Source of the DNA: Sphingopyxis witflariensis
GTDB lineage: Bacteria > Pseudomonadota > Alphaproteobacteria > Sphingomonadales > Sphingomonadaceae
Reading direction: 5' to 3'
Length of the DNA stretch: 64,000 nucleotides
Assembly: GCF_002205635.1 (NCBI RefSeq)
Contig: NZ_NISJ01000004.1
Span: 1 to 64,000 of the forward strand
The position numbers and the translations under genes were made by a program. The notes under the pieces are model-generated. The model did no database searches and had not been told where the DNA came from. It saw nothing but the letters and a program-made list of their open reading frames with translations. Below, one piece after another: positions 36,608-64,000 of this stretch. Numbering within the stretch: position 1 is the stretch's first letter; the number at the start of each line of letters is the position of its first letter.

Positions 36608-36654
36608 GGTCTTTCCCGAAGTTGACAAGGGTGCCGTGCAGTGCGGCTTAAAAA

Positions 36655-36672
36655 TACTTCTATATAGAAGTA
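36655..36672. promoter_or_regulatory. Perfect 18-bp palindrome, likely operator
   Basis: tacttctatatagaagta reads the same on both strands. It lies between the divergent Rieske and Gfo/Idh/MocA genes, 48 bases from the first start and 59 from the second, so a bound regulator could control both. It shares the CTT-N8-AAG outer pattern with the operator family at 43.6-61.5 kb but has a different centre. The best local candidate regulator is the MarR protein at 38862. Confidence 0.75.
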
Positions 36673-36730
36673 ATTTGCTTTTCAAGGGGGCAGGCGCTAA
36701 ATGGGTCCGCAAGGGTTTCGGGAGCGGCGG

Positions 36731-37879: not shown

Positions 37880-37888
37880 AAGACACGC

Positions 37889-41152: not shown

Positions 41153-43429
41153 TCAGAATTTCACCGCAAAGTCGACGCCGAATTCGCGCGGCGGCTGGTA
41201 AAATTGCGAGATCGGGGTCGCGCCGGCGTTGGTCGCGCCCGAAATCACCTCCTGATCGGTGAGGTTCGAACCATAGAGGGTGACCTTCCACTTGTCGTCC
41301 TGACCCGCGACCGCGATGCTTGCGTTGAGCAGCACGACTTCGTCGCGATAATAGCCGGGAAGATTGCTGCGGCCCCAGGTGTTGAAGCGCGCCGAATAGC
41401 GCGCGTCGCTGTGCAGCTTGATCTCGCCGAAACCGGTCGGGATCGCATAGTCGACCGACAGGCTGCCGCTCCACTTCGGCGCATTGGCCAGATCGAGGCC
41501 CGACGAATCGGTCGGGACCGCGAAGGTGCCGTTGGGCACGCCGTTGATCAGGATCGGGGTGGCGGGGCCGCACTGGCCGACTTCGGGCGCGCCGTTGGTG
41601 AAGACGCCGTTCGTGTCGGCGCAGAAGTCGGTGTAGCGCGCGTGGAGATAGGCGACATTGGCGCCGATGGTCAGCCCGTCCATCGGACGCAGCAGGCTTT
41701 CGACTTCAAAGCCATAGATTTTGGCCGCCGCGACATTGGTCGTGATATTTTCGGCGCGGACGGCGCCCATCTTGGTCACCGAGCTTTGCAGGTCGCGGTA
41801 GTTGTTCACGAAGCCCGCGACGTTGACGCGCAGCAGGCGGTCGAACAGGTCGGTCTTGGCGCCGACCTCGAACGCATTGACGCGCTCGGGGTTATAGGGA
41901 CCGACATTTTCGGGGATGGTGCCGCGCGAATTATAGCCGCCGGCCTTATAGCCCTGCGAATAATTGGCGTAGAGCATCACGGCGGGCGAGAAGCGATATT
42001 CGGCGGTCAGGCGCGGGGTGAATTCGGCCCATGACGCCTCCAGGCTGCTCGCGAACGACGAAGTCTGGTTGCCGTTCACCCGCACCTGTGTCGCGATGTC
42101 ATATTTCTTGCGGTCGTGGCTGTAGCGGCCGCCGAGCGACAGCGTCAGCCCCTCGGCCGGATGCGCGTTGACCAGCGCGAACATCGCATAGCTTTCGGTG
42201 TCCTGGTGGAGCTGTGCCAGCGTCGTCGTGGTCGGCGTTGCGAGCACCGTGTTGAACTGGCGCCATTTGTCGGTCTGATAGTAAAGGCCGACGACGAAAT
42301 CGACCGGCTCGCCCGTCGGCGAGACATAGCGCAACTCGCCGCTCTTCGATTCGCCCTTGAAGTCGCGGGTCACGTCGAGCTGCGGCGCCGGGGTGATCAG
42401 CCCGTCAAAGTCGCCGCGCGTCAGATAGGTGAGGTGGCGATAGCCGAGCACCGAGGTGATCGTGCCGTAACCGACGTCGAGGTTCGAGGTCCACGACCCG
42501 CCATAGGTTTCGGTGTTGGCGATCGGATCGAACAGCACCGCCGATTTGCGGACATCGGTCTTCACTTCATTGGGCAGCAGGTCCCAGTTTGGGTCGCCAT
42601 TGTCGAGGACGTGCGGCGCGGGGCCGGTCGTCTTCTGCTTCAGCCAGTCGGCGACGATCGTCGTGTCGAACGCACCGCCGGCATCATAGGCGAGCGCGCC
42701 GCGCACCGATTTGACGTTGCTGCCGTTCAGGCGATTGCCCGTGATGACGTTGCGGCTGTAGCCGTCATAGTCGCGGAAATTGACCGCGACCTTCGCCGAC
42801 AGCGCGCCGTCGGCGAAATTGCCGGTGTTGACCTTGCCGCGAAACTGCTTGAGCCCGAACGAGCCGATGGTCAGACGCGCCTCGGCGCCGAAATCGTCGG
42901 TCGGGCGCGCGGTGATGACGTTGAGCGTGCCGGCGAGATTATTCTTGCCGAACAGCACGCCCTGCGGACCCTTCAATACTTCGACGCGCTCGACGTCGAA
43001 CAGGTCGAGCATCGTGCTGGAGACGAAGGGGATATAGACGCCGTCGATGATCGTGCTGACCTTGGGGTCGGCATTGGGATCGGGATCCGCCGTGCTCATG
43101 CCGCGGATCGAGATCATCGGCACGTTGGCGACGAGGCCCTGCGTCTGGAGGACGACGTTCGGCGCGAGGCCGTTGAGGCTGGTGATGTTGGTGCTGCCGC
43201 TGCCTTCGACCATTTCGGCGTTGAACGCCGAAATCGCGATGGGGACATTCTGGACGCTTTCGGACCGGCGCTGGGCGGTCACGAGAATCTCGCCATAGCT
43301 GTTGTCGGCGTTGGATGCCGTGTCACCCGATGTCGCCTGATCGGTTTGAGCGTCGCTGGTTTGCGCCTGAACGGGCATGGCGGCGAGCGCCGCAACCGCT
43401 GTCGAAATGAACAGAAAACCGGTCTTCAT
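41153..43429 (-). CDS. TonB-dependent receptor
   Basis: 758 aa. Signal peptide ends MPVQAQT. The plug has GEILVTAQRRSESVQNVPIA, ISIRGMSTADPDPN and VERVEVLKGPQGVLFGKNN, and the barrel ends FAVKF with terminal Phe. GGGAGGA is upstream of the ATG at 43429. It should import a substrate of the catabolic island; sulfatase downstream is probably cotranscribed. Confidence 0.95.
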   Translation of the reverse strand: MKTGFLFISTAVAALAAMPVQAQTSDAQTDQATSGDTASNADNSYGEILVTAQRRSESVQNVPIAISAFNAEMVEGSGSTNITSLNGLAPNVVLQTQGLVANVPMISIRGMSTADPDPNADPKVSTIIDGVYIPFVSSTMLDLFDVERVEVLKGPQGVLFGKNNLAGTLNVITARPTDDFGAEARLTIGSFGLKQFRGKVNTGNFADGALSAKVAVNFRDYDGYSRNVITGNRLNGSNVKSVRGALAYDAGGAFDTTIVADWLKQKTTGPAPHVLDNGDPNWDLLPNEVKTDVRKSAVLFDPIANTETYGGSWTSNLDVGYGTITSVLGYRHLTYLTRGDFDGLITPAPQLDVTRDFKGESKSGELRYVSPTGEPVDFVVGLYYQTDKWRQFNTVLATPTTTTLAQLHQDTESYAMFALVNAHPAEGLTLSLGGRYSHDRKKYDIATQVRVNGNQTSSFASSLEASWAEFTPRLTAEYRFSPAVMLYANYSQGYKAGGYNSRGTIPENVGPYNPERVNAFEVGAKTDLFDRLLRVNVAGFVNNYRDLQSSVTKMGAVRAENITTNVAAAKIYGFEVESLLRPMDGLTIGANVAYLHARYTDFCADTNGVFTNGAPEVGQCGPATPILINGVPNGTFAVPTDSSGLDLANAPKWSGSLSVDYAIPTGFGEIKLHSDARYSARFNTWGRSNLPGYYRDEVVLLNASIAVAGQDDKWKVTLYGSNLTDQEVISGATNAGATPISQFYQPPREFGVDFAVKF

Positions 43430-43650
43430 AAATCCTCCCACTTTGGCGGCCGTGTGCTTTCGTCGCCCGCACGCGTTGCCGCGGCGGAATGTGCCTTCAC
43501 ATCCGGCCTCTTCATTTCACAAGAACGGGAGCGGTTGTTGGCCGGGGCCGATATTTCTGTCGGCACAGAATGTCTTTGCATCCTCATCGCGTGCCGCCAG
43601 CTTGGTCGCTATCCTTCGTTCCAAGCCCGATGTAGCAGAGAGGAAAAATA

Positions 43651-43825: not shown

Positions 43826-45259
43826 ATGGGCGTCCGGCGGATGAAAGCGTCGTCGCCGCGCACATTATACGACAAGATATGGGATGCCCACGCCGTCGCC
43901 GAGGATGATGGCGAGACCTTGCTCTATATCGACCTGCACCTGTTGCACGAGGTGACATCGCCGCAGGCTTTCGCCGCGCTTGCAGCGGCGGGGCGCCCGG
44001 TGCGGCGTCCGGCGCGGGCGCTCGCGCTGTGCGATCATAATGTACCGACCGAGGGGCAGGCCGCCGGGCCGTCGGGGGTCGCCGACGAGCAGGCGCGCGC
44101 GCAGATCGAGATGCTCGCCGCCAATACGGCGCGTTTCGGGATCGAGAATTTTCCGATGGGTGACCCGCGCGGCGGCATCGTCCATGTCGTCGGACCCGAA
44201 CAGGGGCGCTCGCAGCCGGGGATGACGATCGTCTGCGGCGACAGCCACACCTCGACCCACGGTGCCTTTGGCGCGCTGGCGTTCGGCATCGGCACGTCGG
44301 AGGTCGAACATGTGCTGGCGACCCAGACGATTCGCCAGCGCCGTTCGCGCAACATGCGGGTGCTGGTCGACGGCGAACTGGCGCCGCATGTCCATGCCAA
44401 GGATCTGGCGCTGCATCTGCTGCGCACCCTGGGCGTCGACGGGGCGACGGGGCATGTCATCGAATATGCGGGCGCGGCGATCCGTGCGCTGTCGATGGAG
44501 GCGCGCATGACCTTGTGCAATCTCAGCATCGAAATGGGCGCGCGCGCGGGGCTGGTCGCGCCCGACGACATCAGCTTTGCCTATCTGAAAGGCCGTCCGG
44601 CGGCACCGGCGGGGGGTGATTGGGACGCGGCCGTTATGCGCTGGCGTGTGCTGGCGACCGATGCTGGCGCGCTTTTCGACCGGGAGGTGCAGATCGATGC
44701 GGCCGACGTTGGGCCGATGGTCAGTTGGGGCACCAATCCGTCACAGGTGATCGGTATCGGCGAGTGCATCCCCGACCCCGCCGCGATGGCCGACGGCGAT
44801 GACCGGGCCACCGCCGAGCGTGCGCTTGCCTATATGGATTTGATGCCCGGTGCGGCGATTGCCGGACAGCGGCTCGACCGGGTGTTCATCGGCAGCTGCA
44901 CCAACAGCCGGATCGAGGATCTGCGCGTCGTCGCCGATATTGTGCGCGGCCGCCGCGTGGCGCCGCATATCCGCGCGATGGTCGTGCCGGGGTCAGGGCT
45001 GGTGAAACGGCAGGCCGAGGCCGAGGGAGTCGATGTGATCCTGCGCGACGCCGGGTTCGACTGGCGCGAACCGGGATGCTCGATGTGCGTGGGGATGAAC
45101 TCCGACAGGTTGCAGCCGGGCGAGCGCTGCGCCGCGACGTCGAACCGGAACTTTGAAAATCGGCAGGGGCGCGGCGGCCGGACGCATCTGATGAGCCCCG
45201 CGCTGGCGGCCGCGAGCGCTGTTGCGGGGTATATCGCCGACCCCCGGATGCTCGACTAG
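43826..45259 (+). CDS. LeuC-like aconitase-family large subunit
   Basis: 477 aa. It follows the 3-isopropylmalate dehydratase large subunit closely: [48 protein letters not shown]. The [4Fe-4S] cysteines are in IGSCTNSR and [10 protein letters not shown]. It would isomerise or hydrate a short branched dicarboxylate together with the LeuD-like subunit. Start at 43826 has AAGGAAGG about ten bases upstream; an ATG at 43841 is possible. Unlike normal leuCD operons, the leuD-like gene is convergent with it, and both genes have their own operator. A catabolic paralogue is likely. Confidence 0.88.
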
Positions 45260-45840
45260 GCGGCGTCTTCGAAGCGTGTGATCGCGTCGGCGTGGCGCAG
45301 CGTCCGGTCGATATCGTCGAGTCCCTCGATCAGGATGCGGCGATCGGCGGCGTCGACGTCGAACAGGATCGTTTCGCCCGACGCGAGCAGGATCTGCTGC
45401 TCCTCCAGATCGACCGTAACCGGCGCATATTGTGAAAGCCTGCTTTGTTCGCGCAGCCATGCGCAGGCCTCGTCGGGCAGGCGGATCAGCAGCAGGCCAT
45501 TCTTGCGTGCATTGTTCGAGAAAATATCGCCGAAGCTTGGCGCGATGACGCAGCGAATGCCAAAGCCGATGAGCGCCCACACCGCATGTTCGCGCGACGA
45601 GCCGCAGCCGAAATTGCGATCGGCGACCAATATCTGCGCGTGCCGGCAGGGACCGCGATTGAGGATGAAGTCGCTCTGTTCGCTGCCATCGGCGGCAAAG
45701 CGCATCTCCTGAAACAGATGGCTGCCCAGTCCGTCGCGGGTCAGCGCCTTCATGAAGCGCGCGGGGATAATCATGTCGGTGTCGACATTGGTCAGCGGCA
45801 GCGGTGCCGCAACGGCCGACAGCCGGGTGAATTTTTCCAT
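45256..45840 (-). CDS. LeuD-like aconitase-family small subunit
   Basis: 194 aa swivel-domain protein. [20 protein letters not shown] and [15 protein letters not shown] are the LeuD signatures, and [19 protein letters not shown] follows. It should pair with the LeuC-like protein. Its last four bases overlap the end of the leuC-like gene tail to tail, an unusual arrangement. An operator-family site lies 17 bases before its start. Confidence 0.9.
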
Positions 45841-47810: not shown

Positions 47811-49448
47811 ATGGACGGGTTGATGCAGAATGTGCCGCTGACGGTCGACCGGATCATCGACCATGCGGCGAGCTGGCACGGTGCGCGCGAGGTCGTGTCG
47901 CGCGATGCCGAGGGGCGCGTTACCCGGTCGACCTATGCCGATATTCATGCCGATGCGAAGCGCGTGTCGAACGCGCTCGCCGCCGAAGGCATTGCGCCGG
48001 GCGACCGCGTCGCGACGATGGGCTGGAACAGCGGCCGCCATCTCGCCGCCTGGTATGGCGCAGCGGGGATGGGAGCAGTGCTCCACACGCTCAACCCGCG
48101 GCTGTTCCTTGAGCAGATCGCCTATATCGCGAATCATGCCGGCGACCGGCTGCTGATCGCCGACCCGGCGACCGCCGAACTGGTCGAACAATTGCTGCCG
48201 CAGGTGCCGTCGATCGAAAAGGTGATCTTCTTTTGCGACCGCGCCGCGCTGCCTGAAACCAGCTTTGCCGCGACCGCATTCGACGACTGGATCGCGGGTC
48301 AGCCCGCCGAATATGTCTGGGGCGGGTTCGACGAGAATAGCGCCTGCGGGCTTTGCTATACGAGCGGTACGACAGGCAATCCCAAGGGCGTGCTTTATTC
48401 GCACCGGTCGAATTACATCCATGCGTTAATGACGCTCCAGCGCGACGCACTGGGGCTGTCGGCGCGCGATACCGTGCTGCTTGTCGTGCCGATGTATCAC
48501 GCCAATGCGTGGGGGGTCGTCTATTCGGCGCCCGCAGTTGGCGCGAAACTGGTACTGCCCGGGCAGCGGATGGACGGCGAATCCATCTATAATCTGATCG
48601 AGGAAGAGGGCGTCACATACTCGGCCGCAGTTCCGACGGTATGGCAGATGCTGCTCCAATATATGCAGGACAATGGCAAACGCTTCACGACGCTGGAGCG
48701 GGTGACGATTGGCGGCGCGGCGTGCCCCGAATCGATCGTCCGTACCTTCCGCGACGATTATGGCGTCGATGTCATCCAAGGCTGGGGGATGACCGAAACC
48801 TCGCCGCTCGGCACAGTCGCGGTACCCAATGCGGCGGTCGCCGCGATGCCCGACGCCGAGCAAATGGCGTATAAGCTCAAGCAAGGCCGGCTGCTCTGCG
48901 GGCTCGAGATGAAGCTGGTCGACGACGACGGCGCGCGCCTGCCCAACGATGGCAAGACCCCGGGGCGGCTGATGATCAAGGGGCCGACGATCGCGGGCGC
49001 CTATTATGGCGGCGACGGCGGCGATGTCCTCGATGCCGAGGGCTTTTTCGACACCGGCGACGTCAGCACGATCGACGCGCAGGGCTATATGCAGATCACC
49101 GATCGCGCCAAGGACGTGATCAAATCGGGTGGCGAGTGGATCAGCTCGATCGAGATTGAAAATATCGCACTGGGTTATAGCCCCGTCGCGGTCGCTGCGG
49201 TTGTCGGCGTCGCGCACCCCAAATGGGACGAGCGCCCGATCCTGCTGTGCCAGCTCAAGCCCGGCGCGAGTGCTGTCGCGAGTGACTTGATCGCCTATCT
49301 CGACGGCAAGATAGCCAAATGGTGGATGCCCGACGATGTGCTCTTCGTCGACGAAATCCCGCTGGGACCGACGGGCAAGATCGACAAGCGCGCGATCCGC
49401 GCCGGGCTCGATGGCTATGCGCTGCCGTTCGAGGTTTCTCGCGGATGA
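47811..49448 (+). CDS. Acyl-CoA ligase 1 (AMP-binding, fatty-acyl type)
   Basis: 545-aa ANL-superfamily enzyme. The AMP-binding P-loop is CYTSGTTGNPKGVLYSH; the A5 motif is QGWGMTETSPLG; FFDTGDVSTID and the C-terminal catalytic lysine in GPTGKIDKRA follow. Close in pattern to medium/long-chain and DmdB-type ligases. It activates a carboxylic acid with ATP and CoA. It is probably the first gene of the transcription unit led by the operator at 47761, but a long hairpin separates it from the next gene. Confidence 0.92.
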   Translation: MDGLMQNVPLTVDRIIDHAASWHGAREVVSRDAEGRVTRSTYADIHADAKRVSNALAAEGIAPGDRVATMGWNSGRHLAAWYGAAGMGAVLHTLNPRLFLEQIAYIANHAGDRLLIADPATAELVEQLLPQVPSIEKVIFFCDRAALPETSFAATAFDDWIAGQPAEYVWGGFDENSACGLCYTSGTTGNPKGVLYSHRSNYIHALMTLQRDALGLSARDTVLLVVPMYHANAWGVVYSAPAVGAKLVLPGQRMDGESIYNLIEEEGVTYSAAVPTVWQMLLQYMQDNGKRFTTLERVTIGGAACPESIVRTFRDDYGVDVIQGWGMTETSPLGTVAVPNAAVAAMPDAEQMAYKLKQGRLLCGLEMKLVDDDGARLPNDGKTPGRLMIKGPTIAGAYYGGDGGDVLDAEGFFDTGDVSTIDAQGYMQITDRAKDVIKSGGEWISSIEIENIALGYSPVAVAAVVGVAHPKWDERPILLCQLKPGASAVASDLIAYLDGKIAKWWMPDDVLFVDEIPLGPTGKIDKRAIRAGLDGYALPFEVSRG

Positions 49449-49494: not shown

Positions 49495-49630
49495 GATTCG
49501 CGCAGAGGCGCAGAGATCGCAGAGATTCGGGTTTATGCGGAGGCGCGGAGGTGTGGAGCAGGCAAGAGATTGGCGGCTTCGCCGCTCCTATTCTCTCTTT
49601 CTCTGCGATCTCTGCGCCTCTGCGCGAATC
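49495..49630. repeat. Long hairpin with perfect 31-bp arms
   Basis: Left arm 49495-49525 and right arm 49600-49630 are exact reverse complements; the core is gcagaggcgcagagatcgca. The 74-base centre holds further small repeats. It lies between acyl-CoA ligase 1 and the alpha/beta hydrolase operon. The gap 49449-49691 has no gene; a ribosome site (AGGAGAG) for the next gene lies at its end. Confidence 0.92.
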
Positions 49631-49691
49631 TCTTTCGGAGCCGCCGCGCCCCGCAATCGCACAATTTGACAATCGATAATCAGGAGAGACG

Positions 49692-50822
49692 ATGATGGAC
49701 CCCAACGGGAACGAAGGACTGGACGCGCAATTTGTCGGACTGGTGTCGCCGACCGCGCCGCGCATTCAGGCGGGCGGGCATCCGTGCCAGGGCATTTACT
49801 GGACGAAATCGGGCACGCGGCCCAAGGTTGCGATCATCGCGACCCATTATAATGTCGATTTCTCCGAACATTATATCGCACCTTATTTTGCGCGGCAGGG
49901 CTTTGGTTTCCTCGGCTGGAACACCCGCTATCGCGGGGTCGAGGATCAGTTCCTGCTCGAACATGCGGTGCTCGACATCGGCGTCGGGATGAAGTGGCTC
50001 AAGGAAGTGGCCGGGGTCGAACAGATTGTCATCCTCGGCAATTCGGGCGGCGGGTCGCTGATGGGCGCCTATCAGGCCGAAGCGATCGCGCCAACGCTGA
50101 CCGACCGGCTGCCGTCGGTGGGTCAGGACGCGCTGGCGCAGCTGATCAAGGGCGACCTCTATATCTCGTTCAACGCGCATCAGGGTCGCCCCGAAGTGCT
50201 GACCGACTGGATGGACCCGTCGGTGATCGACGAGAATGATCCCACCCTGACCGACCCCGAACTCGACCCGTTCAACCCCGACAATGGCCCGCCCTATTCG
50301 GCTGCCTTCATCGAGAAATATCGCGCCGCGCAGCGCGCGCGCAACCAGCGCATCACCGATTGGGCAAAGGCCGAACTCGTGCGCCTCAACGACGCGGGCA
50401 TCCCCGACCGCATCTTCCCGATGTTCCGTTGCTGGGGCGATATTCGCTGCGTCGATCCGTCGATCGATCCGTCGGACCGCAAGCCCAACTGGTGCTATCG
50501 CGGCGACCCCGCGATCGCCAACCGCACGCCCAGCATCGGCCGCGCGAACACGATCAAGACCTGGCTCAACATGTGGAGTCTCGAAACCTCGCCGTGTCAG
50601 GGCGCGCCGCACCTCGCCAAGCAGAACACCCCGGCGCTGGTCGTTCAGGGCACCGCCGACACCGGCGTCTTCCCCAGCGATGCGCGCAAGATCTTCGACT
50701 TCCTGGGTACCCAGGACAAAAAGCTCGAACTGATCCCTGGCGCGCATTATTTCGAGGATTCGATCGAAGAGCGTCAGACCGCCGCCGATCTCGTCGGCAG
50801 CTGGATCCGGGAGAAGCTGTAA
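49692..50822 (+). CDS. Alpha/beta hydrolase 1
   Basis: 376 aa. Nucleophile elbow VILGNSGGGSLMG (S118) and C-terminal catalytic His in LIPGAHYFED. An N-terminal VAIIATHYNVDFSEHY strand region matches the alpha/beta hydrolase start. Probably an esterase or C-C hydrolase; the family has no fixed substrate. AGGAGAG is just upstream of tandem ATGs at 49692 and 49695. Its stop directly abuts the kinase start at 50823, so it is the first gene of a five-gene coupled run. Confidence 0.85.
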   Translation: MMDPNGNEGLDAQFVGLVSPTAPRIQAGGHPCQGIYWTKSGTRPKVAIIATHYNVDFSEHYIAPYFARQGFGFLGWNTRYRGVEDQFLLEHAVLDIGVGMKWLKEVAGVEQIVILGNSGGGSLMGAYQAEAIAPTLTDRLPSVGQDALAQLIKGDLYISFNAHQGRPEVLTDWMDPSVIDENDPTLTDPELDPFNPDNGPPYSAAFIEKYRAAQRARNQRITDWAKAELVRLNDAGIPDRIFPMFRCWGDIRCVDPSIDPSDRKPNWCYRGDPAIANRTPSIGRANTIKTWLNMWSLETSPCQGAPHLAKQNTPALVVQGTADTGVFPSDARKIFDFLGTQDKKLELIPGAHYFEDSIEERQTAADLVGSWIREKL

Positions 50823-51806
50823 ATGGAGCAGGCCGACGCCGATATCATCGCAGAATTGCGCGGCGCCGGCCTGATCGGTGAGGGCGATGTCGTCCTCGAG
50901 CCGCTGACCGGCGGCGTGTCGTGCGACGTGTGGAAGGTCGAGACGCCAACGGGACCGATCGTCGTCAAGCGGCCGCTGGCGCAATTGCGCGTCGCGGCCG
51001 AATGGCTCGCCCCGGTCGAGCGTGGGACAAGCGAAGTGCGCTGGCTCCGCCGCGCACGCGGGGTCGACGCACGGCTCGCGCCCGAAGTGCTCGCCGAGCT
51101 GCCGACCGGCCACGCCTTTGCGATGCGCTTCCTGCCCGGTTGTCCGGTGTGGAAGGACGAGCTGGTCGCGGGGCGCGTCGATGCCGGTTTCGCCGCCGCG
51201 GTGGGGAGCGGGATCGCCGCGGTCCACGCGGCGACGGCGCACAACGACGCCGACCGCGACGCCTTTCCCAACGACGACATGTTCCGCGCGCTACGCATCG
51301 ATCCCTTTCTGCTTTATGTCGCCGAGAATGACGCCGAACTTGCACCGCACCTGCGCGCGCTGGCGGGCGATCTCGCGGGGCGCAAGATCGCGCTCGTCCA
51401 TGGCGATGTCAGCCCCAAGAATATTCTCGTCAGCGCCGAAGGCCCGGTCATTCTCGACGCCGAATGCGCGGTTTATGGCGATCCGGCGTTCGACCTCGCT
51501 TTCTGTACCACGCATCTGCTGCTCAAGGCGGTGTGGCTGGACGACGCGCGCCTGACCGAGGCCGCGACTGCGCTCGTTGCCGCCTATCGCGCCGGAATCG
51601 ATTGGGAAGACCCCGCCGACCTGTTGCTCCGCGCGGGCCAGCTCACCGCCGCGCTGCTGCTCGCGCGCGTCGAGGGCAAGTCGCCCGCCCCCTATCTCAC
51701 CGACCCCGAACATCAGCGCATCGTGCGCGAACAGGCGCGCGCGCTGATTGCCGCGCCGTCGCCGATCGACGCGCTCGTCACCCATTGGAAAAGGATAGTT
51801 GCATGA
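50823..51806 (+). CDS. Aminoglycoside-phosphotransferase-fold kinase
   Basis: 327 aa. Choline/APH-type kinase fold: the ATP lysine is in IVVKRPL (K49), the catalytic loop is LVHGDVSPKNILV (H193, D195, N200) and the metal motif is LDAECAVYGDPAFDLAF (D212). APH-fold kinases phosphorylate small hydroxyl compounds, not only antibiotics. Its ATGA overlap with the enolase paralogue gene suggests it makes the phosphorylated substrate for that enzyme. That role is inference. Confidence 0.88.
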   Translation: MEQADADIIAELRGAGLIGEGDVVLEPLTGGVSCDVWKVETPTGPIVVKRPLAQLRVAAEWLAPVERGTSEVRWLRRARGVDARLAPEVLAELPTGHAFAMRFLPGCPVWKDELVAGRVDAGFAAAVGSGIAAVHAATAHNDADRDAFPNDDMFRALRIDPFLLYVAENDAELAPHLRALAGDLAGRKIALVHGDVSPKNILVSAEGPVILDAECAVYGDPAFDLAFCTTHLLLKAVWLDDARLTEAATALVAAYRAGIDWEDPADLLLRAGQLTAALLLARVEGKSPAPYLTDPEHQRIVREQARALIAAPSPIDALVTHWKRIVA

Positions 51807-53101
51807 CCTCGCGTATCGCCTCCGTCACCGGCCGCCAGCTTTGGGATTCGCGCGGGCGCCCGACGGTCGAGGCCGAGGTCATCCTCGAATCGGGCGCCGT
51901 CGGACGCGCCATCGCCCCCGCCGGCGCATCGCGCGGCGCGCATGAGGCGATCGACCTGCGCGATGGCGGCACGGCGTATGGCGGCTTCGGCGTCAACGGC
52001 GCGGTCGCGGGCATCGGTGCGGAGATCGCCCCGGCGCTCACCGGCATGGACGCGCGCGATCAAGCCGCGGTCGATGCCGCGCTGTGCGCGCTCGACGGCA
52101 CTCCGAACAAGGCGCGGCTCGGCGCCAATGCCGTCGTTGCAGTATCGATGGCGGTGCTCCACGCCGCTGCGGCGCATGCGCGCGAGCCGCTGTGGCGCTA
52201 TCTCGCGAACGGCGCCAAGGTGCGTATCCCGCTCCCCGAAATCCAGATTTTCGGCGGCGGCGCGCATGCCGGACGCCGCACCGATGTGCAGGACTTCATG
52301 GTCATGTGCCCGAAGGCGGGCAGCTTCCGCCGCGCGCTCGAAATCACCGACGATGTCTATCGCGCCGCGGGCAAGCTGATGGAAGCGAAGGGGCCGCTTA
52401 CCGGGGTTGCCGACGAGGGTGGCTGGTGGCCGAACTTCAGCTCGAACGAGGATGCGCTCGATACGCTGACCCGCGCGATCGAGGCGAGCGGGCACCGCGC
52501 GGGCGACGAAGTCTATATCTCGCTCGACATCGCCGCGAACGAACTTGGCGACGCGTCGGGCTACAGCCTGGCGCTCGACGACGGTCGTCTGACGAGCGAG
52601 GAAATGGCGGCGCGGATCGTCGAATGGGCGAAGCGCTATCCGATCCTGTCGATCGAGGATCCGGCGGGGCAGGACGACTGGGCGGCGATGGCGGCGGTGA
52701 CCGCAGCGATCGGCGACCGGGTCCAGATCATCGGCGACGATGTGCTGGTGACCAATGCCGATCGTGTCGAACGTGCGGCCGAAGCGGGCGCGTGCAACGC
52801 CGCGCTGATCAAGGTCAATCAGGTCGGCACGGTGACCGAAGCAAAAGCCGCGCTCGACGCCGCCGTGGCGCGCGGCTGGGGCGCAATCGTCTCGGCGCGT
52901 TCGGGCGAGAGCGAGGATGTCACCATCGCGCACCTCGCGACCGGCTGGAACGCCGGGCAGCTGAAGGTCGGCAGCTTCACGCGGTCCGAGCGCATGGCGA
53001 AGTGGAACGAGATGTTGCGGATCGAAGAATCGCTGGGCGCCGAAGCCGATTATGCCGGGGCCTCGGCCTTTGCCGCACCGATCGCGGCCACGCTCGCATG
53101 A
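51803..53101 (+). CDS. Enolase paralogue with altered active site
   Basis: 432 aa, enolase fold throughout. Kept: SRGRPTVEAEV start, GGAHA (H155), E205 in ADEGG, metal ligands D242 (SLD), E285 (SIED) and D312 (GDD), the base K337 (LIKVNQVGT) and K388 (GQLKVG). Changed: the usual Q-E-F-M Glu is Asp (D164 in DVQDFM), and the SHRSGETED His is Ala (A365 in SARSGESED). The substrate loop is GASRGAHE instead of GASTG(S/E)RE. It is therefore not a plain copy of glycolytic enolase. It is coupled by ATGA overlaps to the kinase before it and the dehydrogenase after it. It may eliminate water or phosphate from a phosphorylated hydroxy acid other than 2-phosphoglycerate. Confidence 0.85.
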   Translation: MTSRIASVTGRQLWDSRGRPTVEAEVILESGAVGRAIAPAGASRGAHEAIDLRDGGTAYGGFGVNGAVAGIGAEIAPALTGMDARDQAAVDAALCALDGTPNKARLGANAVVAVSMAVLHAAAAHAREPLWRYLANGAKVRIPLPEIQIFGGGAHAGRRTDVQDFMVMCPKAGSFRRALEITDDVYRAAGKLMEAKGPLTGVADEGGWWPNFSSNEDALDTLTRAIEASGHRAGDEVYISLDIAANELGDASGYSLALDDGRLTSEEMAARIVEWAKRYPILSIEDPAGQDDWAAMAAVTAAIGDRVQIIGDDVLVTNADRVERAAEAGACNAALIKVNQVGTVTEAKAALDAAVARGWGAIVSARSGESEDVTIAHLATGWNAGQLKVGSFTRSERMAKWNEMLRIEESLGAEADYAGASAFAAPIAATLA

Positions 53102-54018
53102 TCGTCCTCCACGCTCGCCCAAGCCCCGGTTTCTGCGCCGCAGTCGATGCCATTTTCGGCCCCGGCGTGGTGACGCATGTCGACGAGGCGGCGTCGCTCG
53201 ATGGTGTCGCGGGCGAGATCACCGCTTTGCTCCATGTGCTGACCCCGGTGACCGCCGACTTCATCGCCTCGGCGCCGAAGCTCAAACTGATCCAGAAACT
53301 CGGGGTCGGAGTGAACACGATCGCGCTCGACGCCGCACAGACGCACGGCGTCGCGGTGTGCAACATGCCCGGCACGAACAGCCAGGCGGTCGCCGAAATG
53401 GCGCTGTCGCTGATGATGGCGGTGCTGCGCCGGACCTGCTTCTTCGACGCGCGCACCCGCGCCGGAGAAGGCTGGACCGCCGATCCGTCCGAACTCGATA
53501 GCGTCGGCGAAATTGCCGGGCGCACCGTCGGCCTCGTCGGCTTCGGCCATTCGGCGCAGCTGCTCGCCCCCGTCCTCGCGGCGCTGGGCGCGAAGGTCGT
53601 TTACACCGCGCGCAGCGCGCGCGACGCGCCCTATGAATTTTGGCCGCTAGGTCGGCTGGTTGCCGAGGCCGATATCGTCTCGCTGCACATCCCGCTGACC
53701 GACGAGACACGCGGAACCATCGACCCGTTCGCGATGAAGCCCGGCGCGCTACTCGTGAACACCGCGCGCGGCGAGCTCGTTGACGAGGCGCGGCTGGTCG
53801 ATGCGCTGGCGTCGGGGCATTTGCGCGGCGCCGGGCTCGATGTGTTCGCCGCAGAACCGCTGCCGGCCGGCCATCCGCTGCTCGCGCAGCCCAATGCCGT
53901 TCTCGCGCCGCACATCGCGTGGCTCACGCCCGAAACGCTCGTGCGGAGCCTCAACGTCGCCCATGAAAATTGTCGCCGTCTCGCCGCGGGCGAGGCGCTC
54001 TTACATCAGGTGATCTAA
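53098..54018 (+). CDS. D-2-hydroxyacid dehydrogenase
   Basis: 306 aa. The NAD-binding loop GLVGFGHSA (148-150 area) and the catalytic triad R224 (NTARGELVDE), E253 (AAEPLP) and H272 (APHIAWLTP) match D-isomer-specific 2-hydroxyacid dehydrogenases. It reduces a 2-oxo acid to the D-hydroxy acid, or the reverse. Start overlaps the enolase stop (ATGA) and its TAA overlaps the next ATG (TAATG). Substrate unknown; the order kinase-enolase-dehydrogenase suggests interconversion of oxo and hydroxy forms in the same route. Confidence 0.9.
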   Translation: MIVLHARPSPGFCAAVDAIFGPGVVTHVDEAASLDGVAGEITALLHVLTPVTADFIASAPKLKLIQKLGVGVNTIALDAAQTHGVAVCNMPGTNSQAVAEMALSLMMAVLRRTCFFDARTRAGEGWTADPSELDSVGEIAGRTVGLVGFGHSAQLLAPVLAALGAKVVYTARSARDAPYEFWPLGRLVAEADIVSLHIPLTDETRGTIDPFAMKPGALLVNTARGELVDEARLVDALASGHLRGAGLDVFAAEPLPAGHPLLAQPNAVLAPHIAWLTPETLVRSLNVAHENCRRLAAGEALLHQVI

Positions 54019-54710
54019 TGTCGCTTCCCATCGTCCTCATCACCGGCCAGCTTCTGACCGACGCGGTGTGGCAGCCGCTGCTCGATATGTGGGCGGACCG
54101 CGAAGTGATTGTCGCCGATAACCGCAGCGACGATACGATCGAAGGTTTCGCACAGCGCCTGCTCGACAATGCGCCCCCGAAATTCGTCCTCGTCGGCCAT
54201 GCGCTGGGTGGCTTTGTCGCCTTCGAGGTGATGCGCCGCGCCCCCGAACGCGTCGCCAGGCTCGCGCTGATTTCGACGCTCGCGTCGGCCGATGGTCCGG
54301 CGCAGACTGCGCGGCGGCAGGGCTATATCGATCTTGTGACAAGCGGCCAGTTCGATCAGGTGGTCGAGGAACGCATCCCGATCCTCTTCCCCGAGCATAA
54401 GCGCAGCGACGCGCGCCTGCTCGGCATCGCGCGCCAGATGGCGGCCGATACCGGCGCCGAAACCTTCCTCGCGCAGCAGCGCGCGATCATGGCGCGGATC
54501 GACAGCCGGCCGCGGCTCGGCGAGATTGCGGTGCCGACCCTGCTGATCTGGGGCGAGCAGGACGGCATCACCAGCCGCGCGCATCATGACGAGATACTGG
54601 AAGCGATCCCCGGCGCGCGGCTCGAGGTCGTGCCGGGTGCGGGGCATTTGCCGACGGTCGAGGCGCCCGAGGTGGTGGCGGCGCTGCTGACCGAGTTTAT
54701 CGATAACTAA
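54018..54710 (+). CDS. Alpha/beta hydrolase 2 lacking the nucleophile serine
   Basis: 230 aa, close to short-chain esterase/MenH-type hydrolases. The nucleophile elbow reads LVGHALGGFVAFE, with Ala at position 62 where Ser is expected, while the acid (D182, WGEQDGIT) and His (H210, PGAGHLPTVEAPE) are kept. It is therefore likely not a normal serine esterase; it could be a lyase-type enzyme, a binding protein or inactive. The GCG codon is clear in the sequence, and the rest of the gene is intact. It is the last gene of the coupled run. Confidence 0.83.
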   Translation: MSLPIVLITGQLLTDAVWQPLLDMWADREVIVADNRSDDTIEGFAQRLLDNAPPKFVLVGHALGGFVAFEVMRRAPERVARLALISTLASADGPAQTARRQGYIDLVTSGQFDQVVEERIPILFPEHKRSDARLLGIARQMAADTGAETFLAQQRAIMARIDSRPRLGEIAVPTLLIWGEQDGITSRAHHDEILEAIPGARLEVVPGAGHLPTVEAPEVVAALLTEFIDN

Positions 54711-54831: not shown

Positions 54832-55884
54832 TTACTTCAGCTCCGCGCGCACCATCGCGGCGCCGTCGACCATCGCCTTCAGCTTGGCCTGCGAATGTTC
54901 GCGGCTGTGATATTTCATCCCGCAATCGGGGGCGATCCACAGGCGTTCGGCGTCGATATAGCGCAGCGCCTCGCGGATGCGGCCCGCGACGACTTCGGGG
55001 GTTTCGACTTCGGGGATCGACAGGTCGAGCACGCCGTACATGATCGTCTTGGTCGGCAGTTCGGCGAGGATCGCGGGGTCGAGCCCCGGCTGCGCCGCCT
55101 CGATCGAGATCACGTCGATCGCGGATGCTTCGAGTTCGGCGAGGAAGTCATAGGCCTTGGGCTTCGCCTTGGTCGAACCCGCGCCATGGTGCACCATCGC
55201 ATAGCCGAAGCAGATGTGGAGCGCGGTCGTGCCGTCGACGCCGTCGAGCGCGCGGTTGATCGCCTCGATCGCATAATATTCGGCCTCGTCGGCCCGCGCC
55301 TGCAAATAGGGTTCGTCGAGCTGGACGACATCGACCCCGGCGGCGAACAAATCCTTCACCTCGGCATTGACCGCGTCGGCATAATCCATCGCGAGCGATT
55401 TCGCGTCGGGATAATAGCCATTCTCGGCCTGCTGGGTCATCGTGAACGGGCCGGGCAGGGTGAGCTTCACCGGCTTGGTCGAATGGCGGCGCAGGAAGGC
55501 GGCGTCCTGCGCCTCGATCGGCGCGATGCGGCGGATCGGGCCTGAGACCAGCGGCACCGGGTTCGATTTGCCGGTGCGGTCGACCGCGCTGCCATGCTTG
55601 TCGGGATCGATCCCCGAAAGCGCGGTCGCGAGGCGGTTCGAATAGCTTTCGCGGCGCATTTCGCCGTCGCCGACGATGTCGATCCCCAGCTCCTCCTGAT
55701 CGCGTATCGCCATCAGCGTTGCCGCTTCCTGCGCATCGGCGAGCCAGGGCGCGGGGATGCGCCACAGCGTCTCGGCACGCACCCGCGGCGGCAGGCTGGC
55801 CTTCAACCGTTCGCGATCGATCAGCCAGTCGGGTTGGGGATAGCTTCCGACGATAGTCGTTGGCAGGATCGGGTGCTTAAACAA
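54832..55884 (-). CDS. MetE-like (cobalamin-independent methionine synthase C-terminal) zinc thiol transferase
   Basis: 350 aa, one-domain member of the MetE/UROD superfamily. Zinc-ligand pattern is H223-x-C225 (ALHICFG), E262 (ISIEAAQPG) and C321 (APDCGMKY), as in MetE and in epoxide:CoM transferases. VGSYPQPDWL start and LPGPFTMTQ are family motifs. The N-terminal MetE half is missing, which is normal for this group. It would move an alkyl group to or from a thiol. The GST gene in the same island fits thiol chemistry; true methionine synthesis is less likely. Confidence 0.85.
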   Translation of the reverse strand: MFKHPILPTTIVGSYPQPDWLIDRERLKASLPPRVRAETLWRIPAPWLADAQEAATLMAIRDQEELGIDIVGDGEMRRESYSNRLATALSGIDPDKHGSAVDRTGKSNPVPLVSGPIRRIAPIEAQDAAFLRRHSTKPVKLTLPGPFTMTQQAENGYYPDAKSLAMDYADAVNAEVKDLFAAGVDVVQLDEPYLQARADEAEYYAIEAINRALDGVDGTTALHICFGYAMVHHGAGSTKAKPKAYDFLAELEASAIDVISIEAAQPGLDPAILAELPTKTIMYGVLDLSIPEVETPEVVAGRIREALRYIDAERLWIAPDCGMKYHSREHSQAKLKAMVDGAAMVRAELK

Positions 55885-61619: not shown

Positions 61620-63974
61620 TCAGAAGCTGGCGCCGAGCGTCAGGCCAAAGGTCCGCGGCGCGCCATAGAAGCGCTGGTTGAAGAATTGCGCGGTCGGGGT
61701 GAAGGCCGACACATAGGTTTTGTTGGTCAGATTCTTGCCCCAGAGCATCGCCCGGAAACGCGCATCTTCGCTTTCCCAGCCGATCGAACCATCGACCAGC
61801 ACGAAATCGCCAGTGCGTCCGCCGGCCTCATTGGCGACCGACGAATAGAAGACGCTGCGATACAGCGCTGCCGCGCGGAACGACAGATTGCCAGCGCTGC
61901 CGAGCGGCACCGTATATTCGGCCGAGGCCTGCGTCTGCCATTTGGGGGCACGCACCAGTTTCAGGTCGGTGTGATCGACGTCGACCAGATAGGTGCCATT
62001 CGGCAGTGCGGTGACGTCGCCGCATGTGGACACCGGCGGTGTCGGAAAGGCTGATGGGCCGTCGATGTCGGCGCAGAAGTCGGTATATTTGGCGTCGAGA
62101 TAGCCAATATTGGCCGACAGGCGAAAATTCTGCGTCGGCTTCAGCGTCGCTTCCAGTTCCAGCCCCTTGGTCGTCGCCGCGCCGATGTTCAGCTGCGCCG
62201 TTTCCTGCCCCGATGCGACATTGGGGTTGGGGAAGAAGACGCCGAATTCCAGCTGCTTGAACTTGGTGACGAAGCCGGTGAGGTTGAGACGCAACAGATT
62301 ATCGAAGAAATCGCCCTTGAAACCGGCCTCGAACAGCTCCGATGTATTGTCTGCGGTCGGTCCGGCGGTCGACGGCGTCGCCGAACGGGCGCCGAAACCG
62401 CCGCCCTTATAACCCTGGCTATATCCCGCATAGACCATGACATCATCGGTCAGGCGATAGTCGACCCCGGCCTTGAACGACATGCGGTCGCGATTATAGC
62501 CGAGTTTAAATGCTTTGCCCGCCGCGAGGTTGGTGTTGGCGATCACTTCCATTTCGGCCAACGACTTGACCGTTTCACGCGTGGTGAAAAAGACGGGCGA
62601 CAACAGGGTTCCGGTCGGGTCGCGGAAATAATCCTTCGATTCCCAGCTTTGACGGATGCCGAAGGTCACGTTCAGCCGGTCGGTGATGCCATAGATGGCC
62701 TGCCCGAACAGCGCCTTCGCAGTATTGTCCTGCTCCACATAATCCTGGCTGCCAAAACGCAGCGTCGGAGCGAGCAGCACGGGGAGCGTCGGGAAGGCCT
62801 GCGCCAGTTCAAAGCTCTGCTTCAGATAATAGCCGCCCAAAACCAGGTTGAGGCGCGCCAGCGCATCGTCGCGGTCCGAAAAATCGGATTGCAGACGCAA
62901 TTCCTGACTGAACTGGCGGTGCGACTGGACGCGGAAGGTCGGGAAGAAGAATTTCTCCGACTGGTCGTAGTCGCTGTCGTTGAAATCGTCGGTTTCGATA
63001 TAACCGGTGACCGACTTGAGCTCAACCGAACCCAGGTCGAGTCCGACATTACCGATAAAGCCCAGTTGATCGGTATCATGATGGGCAGAAAAATCGCGAC
63101 CGATCGTGAAGGCACCGTCATCGGGCTCCTCGAAGCCGAAGGCCGTCCACAACAGCTTGTTGCGGTCGGGGCCCGAATCGCCGCCCGGCGCGCTCGACCG
63201 GTCGCGAACGAGAAAGGCCTTCAGGTTGATGTCGAGATTGTCGGTGGGGGTAAAGACAACCGTGCCGCGCAGCGTCAGCCTGTCCTGTCCGCCAATCTTC
63301 TTGCCGTTCAGGCGATTGGTGAAGAAGCCGTCATAGGTTTCCTTGTTCACGACGATCCGCGCTGCCAGCACATCCTCGATGATCGGCATGTTGACCGCGG
63401 CGCGCGCGTCCATGCGGCCATAATTGCCGACGGTGACTTCGGCCTGCACGCCCCAGTCGCGGCCCGGGTTTTTGGTATAGGCGGCGATGCCGCCGGCGAG
63501 CGAATTTTTGCCGAACGAGGTGCCCTGCGGCCCGCGCAGCACTTCGATCCGGTCGAGGTCGAAGGTGTCGAGCATTGTCGCCACCGGGCGCGTCACGAAC
63601 ACGCCGTCGATCGAGATGCCGACCGGGCTCTCCTCGGTCGATTCGATGCCCTGCGCGCCCAGGCCGCGGATGAAGATCGCGGCGGAGTTGGAGAAGGTCG
63701 CCACCGGCTGGATGCTGATGTTCGGGGTCGAGGGGGCAAGGTCGGTGATGTCGCGCGCCGCGATCTTGGTCAGCGCCTCTTCGCCGAAGGCAGAAATGGC
63801 CTGCGGGACATCCTGCAGCGATTCATTTTTGAAACGCGCGGTGACGATGATGTCGTTCGTGTCGCTGGCGGCGGTATCGGCCGGCGCGTCGCTCTGCGCC
63901 ATCGCTGGCGCGGCGCCTGCCATCATCGCGGCACAAGCCACGCCGGACAGCAGAATCTGGTCAAGAAGCTTCAT
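61620..63974 (-). CDS. TonB-dependent receptor
   Basis: 784 aa. Signal peptide ends APAMAQSD. The plug has NDIIVTARFKNESLQDVPQA, IFIRGLGAQGIESTEESP and DRIEVLRGPQGTSFGKNS; the barrel ends LGASF with terminal Phe. GGGAGGG lies five bases before the ATG at 63974. It is probably the outer-membrane importer for the catabolic island together with the receptor at 41153. Its promoter lies largely outside the window. Confidence 0.95.
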   Translation of the reverse strand: MKLLDQILLSGVACAAMMAGAAPAMAQSDAPADTAASDTNDIIVTARFKNESLQDVPQAISAFGEEALTKIAARDITDLAPSTPNISIQPVATFSNSAAIFIRGLGAQGIESTEESPVGISIDGVFVTRPVATMLDTFDLDRIEVLRGPQGTSFGKNSLAGGIAAYTKNPGRDWGVQAEVTVGNYGRMDARAAVNMPIIEDVLAARIVVNKETYDGFFTNRLNGKKIGGQDRLTLRGTVVFTPTDNLDINLKAFLVRDRSSAPGGDSGPDRNKLLWTAFGFEEPDDGAFTIGRDFSAHHDTDQLGFIGNVGLDLGSVELKSVTGYIETDDFNDSDYDQSEKFFFPTFRVQSHRQFSQELRLQSDFSDRDDALARLNLVLGGYYLKQSFELAQAFPTLPVLLAPTLRFGSQDYVEQDNTAKALFGQAIYGITDRLNVTFGIRQSWESKDYFRDPTGTLLSPVFFTTRETVKSLAEMEVIANTNLAAGKAFKLGYNRDRMSFKAGVDYRLTDDVMVYAGYSQGYKGGGFGARSATPSTAGPTADNTSELFEAGFKGDFFDNLLRLNLTGFVTKFKQLEFGVFFPNPNVASGQETAQLNIGAATTKGLELEATLKPTQNFRLSANIGYLDAKYTDFCADIDGPSAFPTPPVSTCGDVTALPNGTYLVDVDHTDLKLVRAPKWQTQASAEYTVPLGSAGNLSFRAAALYRSVFYSSVANEAGGRTGDFVLVDGSIGWESEDARFRAMLWGKNLTNKTYVSAFTPTAQFFNQRFYGAPRTFGLTLGASF

Positions 63975-64000
63975 ATACACCCTCCCAATGGTCCATCGTC

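What the first reader, a model, noticed from the sequence alone, without database searches (positions are those of the whole stretch)
49692..54710. Coupled hydrolase-kinase-enolase paralogue-dehydrogenase-hydrolase operon of unknown pathway
Five genes follow each other with no gap: stop abuts start at 50822/50823, then ATGA, ATGA and TAATG overlaps. An APH-fold kinase, an enolase paralogue and a D-2-hydroxyacid dehydrogenase in strict coupling suggest a route of the type oxo acid <-> hydroxy acid -> phospho-hydroxy acid -> enol product. I know no described pathway with this set. One simple reading is hydroxypyruvate/glycerate to a PEP-like product, but the altered enolase argues for another substrate.
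Basis: partly seen in the sequence, partly recalled or inferred. Interest (0 to 1): 0.8.

Follow-up and report, generated by a model that had tools for sequence, protein, structure and literature searches.

The report
Kinase paired with an altered enolase
A five-gene bacterial operon contains a two-gene core, a kinase and a relative of the glycolytic enzyme enolase with two changed active-site residues, that recurs in distant bacteria and in salt-loving archaea and probably turns an unidentified glycerate-like acid into phosphoenolpyruvate or a close relative.

Summary
The operon is real: hydrolase A, APH-fold kinase B, enolase paralogue C, D-2-hydroxyacid dehydrogenase D and hydrolase E run 49692-54710 (+) with the stop-start contacts described. 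The order A-E recurs in 22 of 23 loci found with the kinase. The main finding is the core. Of 110 distinct enolases compared, 82 have Ala/Asp at yeast positions 373/168, 26 housekeeping ones have His/Glu, 2 have Gly/Asp, none is mixed. All 37 other genomes first found through C-like enolases also hold the kinase, 31 of them within 2.5 kb; 0 of 23 canonical representatives has it alongside. The pair occurs in alpha- and betaproteobacteria, Rhodococcus, Bacteroidota and haloarchaea, often with D-2-hydroxyacid dehydrogenase, FAH hydrolase or sugar genes. Thirty of 30 module genomes keep a high-scoring second enolase and 22 of 30 a known glycerate 2-kinase, so ordinary D-glycerate is a poor fit for most. 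Best reading: hydroxy acid -> 2-phospho acid -> enol phosphate (PEP or analogue); substrate unidentified. Ten answered literature searches showed no such pair.

The parts
49692..50822 (+). Gene A: alpha/beta-hydrolase-fold protein, 376 aa; Ser118, Asp323 and His352 conserved
   Evidence: weak Peptidase_S9/Hydrolase_4; no PDB relative by sequence; Ser 32, Asp 32, His 31 of 32 matches, repeated stretches included; no other residue at the His
50823..51806 (+). Gene B: APH-fold small-molecule kinase, 327 aa; HGDxSPKN and D212/E214 invariant in 52 aligned members
   Evidence: PF01636, 67 bits; nearest solved: methylthioribose kinase 2olc, E 4.8e-18
51803..53101 (+). Gene C: divergent enolase, 432 aa; metal ligands, Lys337 and Glu205 kept; yeast H373 -> Ala365, yeast E168 -> Asp164
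   Evidence: (TIGR01060 481.9 bits, cut-off 300)
53098..54018 (+). Gene D: D-2-hydroxyacid dehydrogenase, 306 aa; catalytic Arg224/Glu253/His272 conserved
   Evidence: Arg 56, His 56, Glu 55 of 56 matches, repeated stretches included
54018..54710 (+). Gene E: alpha/beta hydrolase, 230 aa, nearest curated families PcaD-type; nucleophile Ser replaced by Ala62
   Evidence: Ala in 29 of 29 matches, repeated stretches included; His210 present in the window copy
47811..49448 (+). Associated acyl-CoA ligase upstream of A; found in 21 of the 22 five-gene loci, absent from L027, so not obligate

Best explanation
B and C are a dedicated two-enzyme dehydration unit for a small 2,3-dihydroxy (glycerate-type) acid that the housekeeping enzymes do not handle. 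In this operon D reduces a 3-hydroxy-2-oxo acid to the D-2-hydroxy acid; B transfers phosphate from ATP to the C2 hydroxyl; C, keeping the two-metal enolase site, Lys base and Glu acid but with a remodelled wall near C3, removes the 3-substituent and yields PEP or a PEP analogue that enters central metabolism (pyruvate kinase or PEP carboxylase). Hydrolase A (in other lineages FAH hydrolases, SDRs or aldehyde dehydrogenases) supplies the acid from a larger compound. Shown: gene order, conservation, the active-site changes, kinase-enolase linkage, metal/acid/base residues kept. Inferred: direction, phosphorylation site, product and class of substrate. Within this reading a 3-substituted glycerate or L-glycerate comes ahead of D-glycerate.
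For: Of 110 distinct enolases 82 are Ala/Asp, 26 His/Glu, 2 Gly/Asp, none mixed (the groups are defined by these two sites). All 37 other genomes first reached through a C-like enolase hold the kinase: 31 within about 2.5 kb, 2 within 10 kb, 4 elsewhere. Over all 56 non-redundant Ala/Asp enolases: 48 within 2.5 kb, 5 further along the stretch, 3 elsewhere (part of these were fetched through the kinase); canonical 0 of 23. Kinase and enolase overlap by 4 bases in 39 of 56 (my rule favoured the start nearest the kinase stop). Distance matrices correlate, r 0.76 over 51 loci, 0 of 5000 permutations. Metal ligands, Lys337, Glu205, Arg366, Ser367, Lys388 kept; they match 2-PGA contacts Glu206, Lys338, Arg367, Ser368 of Chloroflexus enolase, whose Glu165 (here Asp164) also contacts 2-PGA (PMC4450660, passages; alignment). 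Dehydrogenase in 18 and FAH in 11 of 39 stretches. PEP carboxylase beside dehydrogenase and kinase in the four annotated Rhizobium records read. Roseibium FAH nearest to 2,4-didehydro-3-deoxy-L-rhamnonate hydrolase (342 bits, cut-off 500). Thirty of 30 module genomes have a second enolase of 643 bits or more; 22 of 30 a DUF4147 glycerate kinase.
Against: No substrate, product or activity was measured. Eight of the 30 module genomes (G000, G122, G101, G150, G074, G807, G205, G771) have no DUF4147 match, and none of those eight a Gly_kinase match, so in the window's own genome B could simply be the D-glycerate kinase. G250 has a further enolase with Glu at position 373, 35 bases from a DUF4147 glycerate kinase: an altered enolase can go with a kinase of a family known for D-glycerate, which favours the D-glycerate rival. 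C scores above the phosphopyruvate hydratase cut-off. Two genomes (G085, G843) have the kinase but only a canonical enolase. Neighbourhoods are heterogeneous and isolated pairs have no obvious source of substrate. The permutation test does not correct for species relatedness.
Confidence: 0.58

Rival explanations
1. Plain hydroxypyruvate/D-glycerate salvage: D is hydroxypyruvate reductase, B a non-homologous D-glycerate 2-kinase, C a second phosphopyruvate hydratase giving PEP.
For: Eight of 30 module genomes, the window's among them, lack both glycerate kinase families searched. PEP carboxylase neighbours in Rhizobium. A BhcA-like aminotransferase near the module in L071 (415 bits, cut-off 650). 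In G250 another altered enolase (Glu at 373) stands next to a DUF4147 glycerate kinase.
Against: 22 of 30 module genomes already hold DUF4147 glycerate 2-kinase and 30 of 30 a second enolase scoring 643 bits or more (its residues were checked in G000, G277 and G493 only). The two replaced active-site residues are hard to explain for the same substrate. Class III glycerate kinase was not searched.
Confidence: 0.25
2. Different leaving group: B phosphorylates a 3-substituted lactate such as 3-sulfolactate, and C expels the substituent (sulfite) to give PEP.
For: The D enzyme class and an aldehyde dehydrogenase would serve sulfopyruvate/sulfolactaldehyde as well as glycerate analogues. A cluster that reads like sulfolactate degradation (UxaA-type protein, hydroxyacid and Ldh-type dehydrogenases, sulfate exporter) lies 14-20 kb from the pair in Paracoccus seriniphilus. 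Arg159 is near-invariant in the main group, 48 of 49.
Against: I saw no sulfite oxidase or exporter named next to the pair in the other annotated stretches read; no profile search was made for one. The seven divergent members lack Arg at position 159, though six have an Arg one or two places earlier. The general acid Glu205 is retained. One paper search gave no such link (listing).
Confidence: 0.08
3. The enolase paralogue is not a catalyst of elimination but a regulatory or scaffold relic, and the kinase acts alone.
For: Loss of the active-site His; kinase without the Ala/Asp enolase in G085 and G843.
Against: Metal ligands, base, acid and phosphate-binding residues are kept in all Ala/Asp rows listed, and none of the Ala/Asp enolases whose genome or stretch was searched stands without the kinase in it.
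Confidence: 0.07

Closest known systems
Housekeeping enolase / phosphopyruvate hydratase (TIGR01060, Eno)
   Same: Two-domain family, two-metal site, Lys base, Glu acid, Arg/Ser phosphate site; scores above the family cut-off
   Different: Ala and Asp at yeast 373 and 168; the 23 canonical representatives form one side of a 100/100 branch; scores 407-503 bits where the housekeeping copies score 643 or more; linked to a kinase
Lower branch of the serine cycle / glycerate assimilation (hydroxypyruvate reductase, glycerate 2-kinase, enolase, PEP carboxylase)
   Same: Same enzyme logic and, in Rhizobium, PEP carboxylase next door
   Different: Kinase is of the APH family, not class I or II glycerate kinase; enolase altered; the standard enzymes are usually present as well
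Methylthioribose kinase and other APH-fold small-molecule kinases
   Same: Fold family and catalytic motifs; nearest solved relatives
   Different: 45.6 bits against a cut-off of 275 for MTRK; linked to enolase and hydroxyacid dehydrogenase
2,4-diketo-3-deoxy acid (Route III) sugar pathways with FAH hydrolase (PMC6336799, passages seen)
   Same: FAH and SDR genes accompany the pair in Roseibium, Paracoccus, Sinorhizobium
   Different: The passages seen end in glycolate or lactate and name no kinase-enolase pair; the window has hydrolases A and E instead
Carboxyphosphonoenolpyruvate synthase (PhpH-type enolase homologue)
   Same: An enolase paralogue acting beyond glycolysis (recalled)
   Different: No comparison was run

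Membership tests
Phosphopyruvate hydratase (enolase) | Family profile above cut-off | tested here: met
   TIGR01060 481.9 bits, cut-off 300
Phosphopyruvate hydratase (enolase) | Metal ligands, Lys base, Glu acid, Arg-Ser phosphate site | tested here: met
   D242, E285, D312, K337, E205, R366, S367, K388 aligned
Phosphopyruvate hydratase (enolase) | Active-site His (yeast 373) and Glu (yeast 168) | tested here: not met
   Ala365 and Asp164 in C; 82 of 110 distinct enolases share this, 26 have His/Glu, 2 Gly/Asp
Phosphopyruvate hydratase (enolase) | Converts D-2-phosphoglycerate to PEP | not testable with these tools
   needs enzyme assay
APH phosphotransferase family | PF01636 profile and catalytic HGDxxxxN / DxE motifs | tested here: met
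   67 bits over 23.2; motifs invariant in 52 sequences
Glycerate kinase class I or II | Gly_kinase or DUF4147 domain | tested here: not met
   B has no such match in Pfam or NCBIfam; none in G000 at all
Methylthioribose kinase | TIGR01767 cut-off | tested here: not met
   45.6 bits, cut-off 275
D-2-hydroxyacid dehydrogenase | NAD-binding profile and Arg/Glu/His catalytic residues | tested here: met
   PF02826 161 bits; Arg 56, Glu 55, His 56 of 56 matches
Serine-type alpha/beta hydrolase (gene E) | Nucleophilic Ser | tested here: not met
   Ala in 29 of 29 matches
Carboxyphosphonoenolpyruvate synthase | Sequence relationship to PhpH | not tested
   no reference sequence fetched

The most novel reading that the evidence does not exclude
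A second enolase reaction: a widespread kinase-enolase pair, spread through bacteria and haloarchaea and annotated as ordinary phosphopyruvate hydratase, that dehydrates a non-standard glycerate (L-glycerate or a 3-substituted 2,3-dihydroxy acid) through its 2-phosphate to PEP or a new PEP analogue, serving as a plug-in exit of many sugar-acid and aromatic catabolic routes.
Probability: 0.43. Interest if true: 0.85.

Novelty: new variant of a known kind. Interest (0 to 1): 0.72.

Why it matters
Enolase is usually treated as a one-reaction enzyme. A group of enolases with two active-site residues replaced, most often encoded by the gene that overlaps a small-molecule kinase gene, in Alpha- and Betaproteobacteria, Actinomycetota, Bacteroidota and haloarchaea, points to an undescribed step of carbon catabolism. 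In annotated records read here these genes are called 'eno, phosphopyruvate hydratase', so the step is invisible to annotation pipelines. The question is directly testable because kinase, enolase and dehydrogenase can be assayed as one coupled chain on a short panel of hydroxy acids.

Tried and rejected
An aminoglycoside-resistance role for B was dropped because the kinase family keeps company with enolases and hydroxyacid dehydrogenases; no resistance profile was run. Strain-specific chance order was rejected. 'C is only a duplicated housekeeping gene' was rejected by the tree and the residue pattern, and separates the two kinds by score in 30 genomes. The tree is unrooted: the canonical enolases form a clade, but seven divergent Ala/Asp sequences sit nearer to them than to the other 49, so the Ala/Asp enolases may be a grade rather than one clade. 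Substrate identification from neighbours failed: FAH/SDR/sugar transport, extradiol dioxygenase/cupin/ADH, PhyH or TauD dioxygenases, aldehyde dehydrogenase and isolated pairs all occur. Literature: ten answered searches, read as listings; none showed this pair, but most subscription journals are not held. Papers opened: PMC2063504, PMC6336799, PMC12421959, PMC4450660, PMC12965863, passages only. Structure prediction was not obtained, so active-site geometry rests on sequence alignment and recall. In one search the offset for gene E's His was one residue short; one search shows His210 in the window copy only. In one search two stretches (L083, L085) got no gene calls and were re-called. Matches under 350 aligned residues were dropped before the counts.
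Full report
Observation. The genome has 4.3 Mb in 38 contigs; the nearest named relatives found are Sphingopyxis. A housekeeping enolase, 45% identical to C, lies on another contig.

Conservation of the operon. A search of named bacterial and archaeal genomes with B gave 23 loci. In 22 of 23 the five genes stand in the same order on one strand; L030, from an Acidimicrobiia MAG, has only the kinase. Of 199 genomes drawn from the family, 6 hold the kinase at E <= 1e-20, the window's included. G101, G122 and G150 have all five in order; G074 has B-C-D-E in order with A nearby on the other strand; G807, of another family, has B-C-D-E without A in the stretch read; G085 has the kinase but none of the other four in 19.5 kb. 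The D-E contact is open by about 100-170 bases in seven of these loci, so B-C-D is the tight part.

The altered enolases. Sites are given by yeast numbering, which I recall. The anchor is the alignment to the best PDB match, whose residue numbers agree with the Chloroflexus enolase paper: 2-PGA is contacted by Glu165, Glu206, Lys338, Arg367 and Ser368 (PMC4450660, passages). C keeps the equivalents of the last four but has Asp164 for Glu165, and Ala365 for the His next to the phosphate-binding Arg. Of 110 distinct enolase sequences of at least 350 aligned residues, 82 have Ala/Asp, 26 His/Glu and 2 (Enterobacter plasmids) Gly/Asp; no mixture was seen. The groups are defined by these sites, so '82 of 82' would say nothing; what counts is that no intermediate occurs and that the sequences sort by neighbourhood. 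The 26 come from one draw over the phylum; four further housekeeping copies are canonical by motif. A later fetch showed another kind: G250 has an enolase with Glu at position 373 next to a DUF4147 glycerate kinase. Among the 56 Ala/Asp representatives, G->A before DEGG is shared by 55, and V or I after the carboxylate-binding Lys and E in the R-S-E-R motif by all 56; the canonical ones have G, T and D there. I recall, without having seen it here, that the changed residues lie on the side where the 3-hydroxyl leaves and that changes of yeast His373 lower activity strongly. In a tree of 80 representatives the 23 canonical enolases form one side of a 100/100 branch. Seven divergent Ala/Asp members (Rhodococcus, Methylobacterium, Sphingobium, Persicobacter, haloarchaea) sit nearer to them than the other 49 do, so with no outgroup I cannot say whether the Ala/Asp enolases are one clade.

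The kinase partner. Searches searched with the enolase itself, so they do not favour kinase neighbours. They gave 37 genomes besides the window's with a C-like enolase (32 and 5 new). The kinase lies within 2.5 kb in 28 of 34 fetched loci and directly beside the enolase in the three hits not fetched (G272, G558, G481, residues of those enolases not checked). In G611 and G669 it is within 10 kb, in G483 on the same contig, and in G277, G493 and G353 on another contig. So 31 of 37 are close and 37 of 37 hold it. Over all 56 non-redundant Ala/Asp enolases, including those fetched through the kinase, 48 have it within 2.5 kb, 5 further along the stretch and 3 elsewhere; of 23 canonical representatives none has it in the 1.5 kb flanks. 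Kinase and enolase share a 4-base overlap in 39 of 56 (the rule favoured the start nearest the kinase stop, so this is an upper figure). Distances within kinases and enolases correlate with r 0.76 over 51 loci and 0.71 over 42 without the divergent members and the short L00x loci, with 0 of 5000 permutations as high (species relatedness not corrected). Kinase without such an enolase was found in G085 and G843. The kinase has the catalytic motifs of its fold; its nearest solved relative is methylthioribose kinase.

Distribution. At E <= 1e-125 a C-like enolase is present in 33 of 385 genomes drawn over the class and 7 of 299 drawn over the phylum, the window's counted in both. Plasmid records with the Ala/Asp form add Rhizobium, Pararhizobium, Sinorhizobium, Methylobacterium, Paracoccus, Roseibium, Azospirillum, Sphingobium, Paraburkholderia, Cupriavidus, Caballeronia, Rhodococcus, Persicobacter, Halomarina and Haladaptatus.

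Accompanying genes. In 39 stretches, family clustering found the enolase in 36, the kinase in 30, a D-2-hydroxyacid dehydrogenase in 18, an FAH hydrolase in 11 and a zinc alcohol dehydrogenase in 8 (two stretches without gene calls are among the 39). In the four annotated Rhizobium records read, kinase and dehydrogenase stand beside PEP carboxylase, with the enolase about 5 kb away. In Roseibium and Paracoccus kinase-enolase-FAH-SDR form one run with a sugar ABC transporter; the Roseibium FAH is nearest to 2,4-didehydro-3-deoxy-L-rhamnonate hydrolase and one SDR to D-xylose 1-dehydrogenase, both under the curated cut-offs. Haloarchaeal islands add dehydratases, aldolases and an IlvC-like protein. 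An aldehyde dehydrogenase stands next to the pair in Persicobacter and L118 and one gene away in L117. A pyruvate kinase lies a few genes from the pair in L079. Most of these partners could make, or use the product of, a 2-hydroxy acid with a 3-substituent; none fixes the substrate.

Is it D-glycerate? Every one of 30 module genomes has a second enolase scoring 643 bits or more against the family model, while the paralogues score 407-503. DUF4147 (class II glycerate kinase) is present in 22 of 30 and class I in 1 of 30, which also has class II. For those an extra pair for D-glycerate would be redundant. The other eight, the window's genome included, have neither, so there D-glycerate is not excluded; and the G250 enolase beside a glycerate kinase shows that position 373 can change in a glycerate setting. 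No class III search was made.

Mechanism. D: 3-hydroxy-2-oxo acid + NAD(P)H -> D-2,3-dihydroxy acid (inferred). B: + ATP -> 2-phospho acid (inferred). C: Lys337 takes the C2 proton, Glu205 helps the 3-group leave, two metals hold carboxylate and phosphate -> enol phosphate (residues shown, reaction inferred). Product to pyruvate kinase or PEP carboxylase (inferred from neighbours). A releases the acid from a larger catabolite (weak inference). E lacks the nucleophilic Ser in 29 of 29 matches and may be non-hydrolytic.

Novelty. Ten answered literature searches gave no description of such a kinase-enolase pair (listings). I file it as a new variant of a known kind: enolase chemistry, probably on another substrate.

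Noticed in passing
window 35357-38881: Rieske oxygenase with LigXa_C domain, Gfo/Idh/MocA oxidoreductase and an NMT1/periplasmic-binding-like protein; by recall the composition of a phthalate 4,5-dioxygenase, dihydrodiol dehydrogenase and decarboxylase set, though no NCBIfam model named them so. Relatives stand near the operon in L033 and L034 too.
   Followed up: partly
window 43826-45840: LeuC-like and LeuD-like genes face each other and overlap by four bases instead of standing in tandem; both, convergent, in 19 of the 22 five-gene loci.
   Followed up: partly
window 54832-55884 (-): MetE-C-terminal-like protein converging on the operon, 88-98% conserved where present but missing in L024, L027, L033 and L036.
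   Followed up: no
window about 49500-49640: Imperfect inverted repeat of 'cgcagaggcgcagagat' type between the CoA ligase and gene A, seen by eye.
   Followed up: no
L101 8265-14879; L106 8295-10834: Enterobacter plasmids carry a very divergent enolase-like gene (Gly/Asp) next to a member of the same kinase family. In L101 a 2-hydroxyacid dehydrogenase, an aminotransferase and iron-containing redox enzymes follow, which looks biosynthetic; in L106 an IS1 element follows the kinase.
   Followed up: partly
L164 7455-10123 (G250:C16): A further enolase variant with Glu at yeast position 373, 35 bases from a DUF4147 glycerate kinase, in a genome that also has the Ala/Asp module and a housekeeping enolase.
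   Followed up: partly
L126 1-12956: Paracoccus seriniphilus plasmid: UxaA-family protein, hydroxyacid and Ldh-family dehydrogenases, sulfate exporter, aldolase and semialdehyde dehydrogenase near the pair, resembling organosulfonate catabolism.
   Followed up: no
L030 (G843) and L032 (G085): Members of the kinase family in genomes whose only enolase found is canonical.
   Followed up: partly
window 54018-54710: Alpha/beta hydrolase E has Ala at the nucleophile position in all 29 matches, an unusual hydrolase without its serine.
   Followed up: partly
window 41153-43441 and 61620-63980: Two TonB-dependent receptors and an MFS transporter frame the neighbourhood, suggesting uptake of the substrate.
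   Followed up: no
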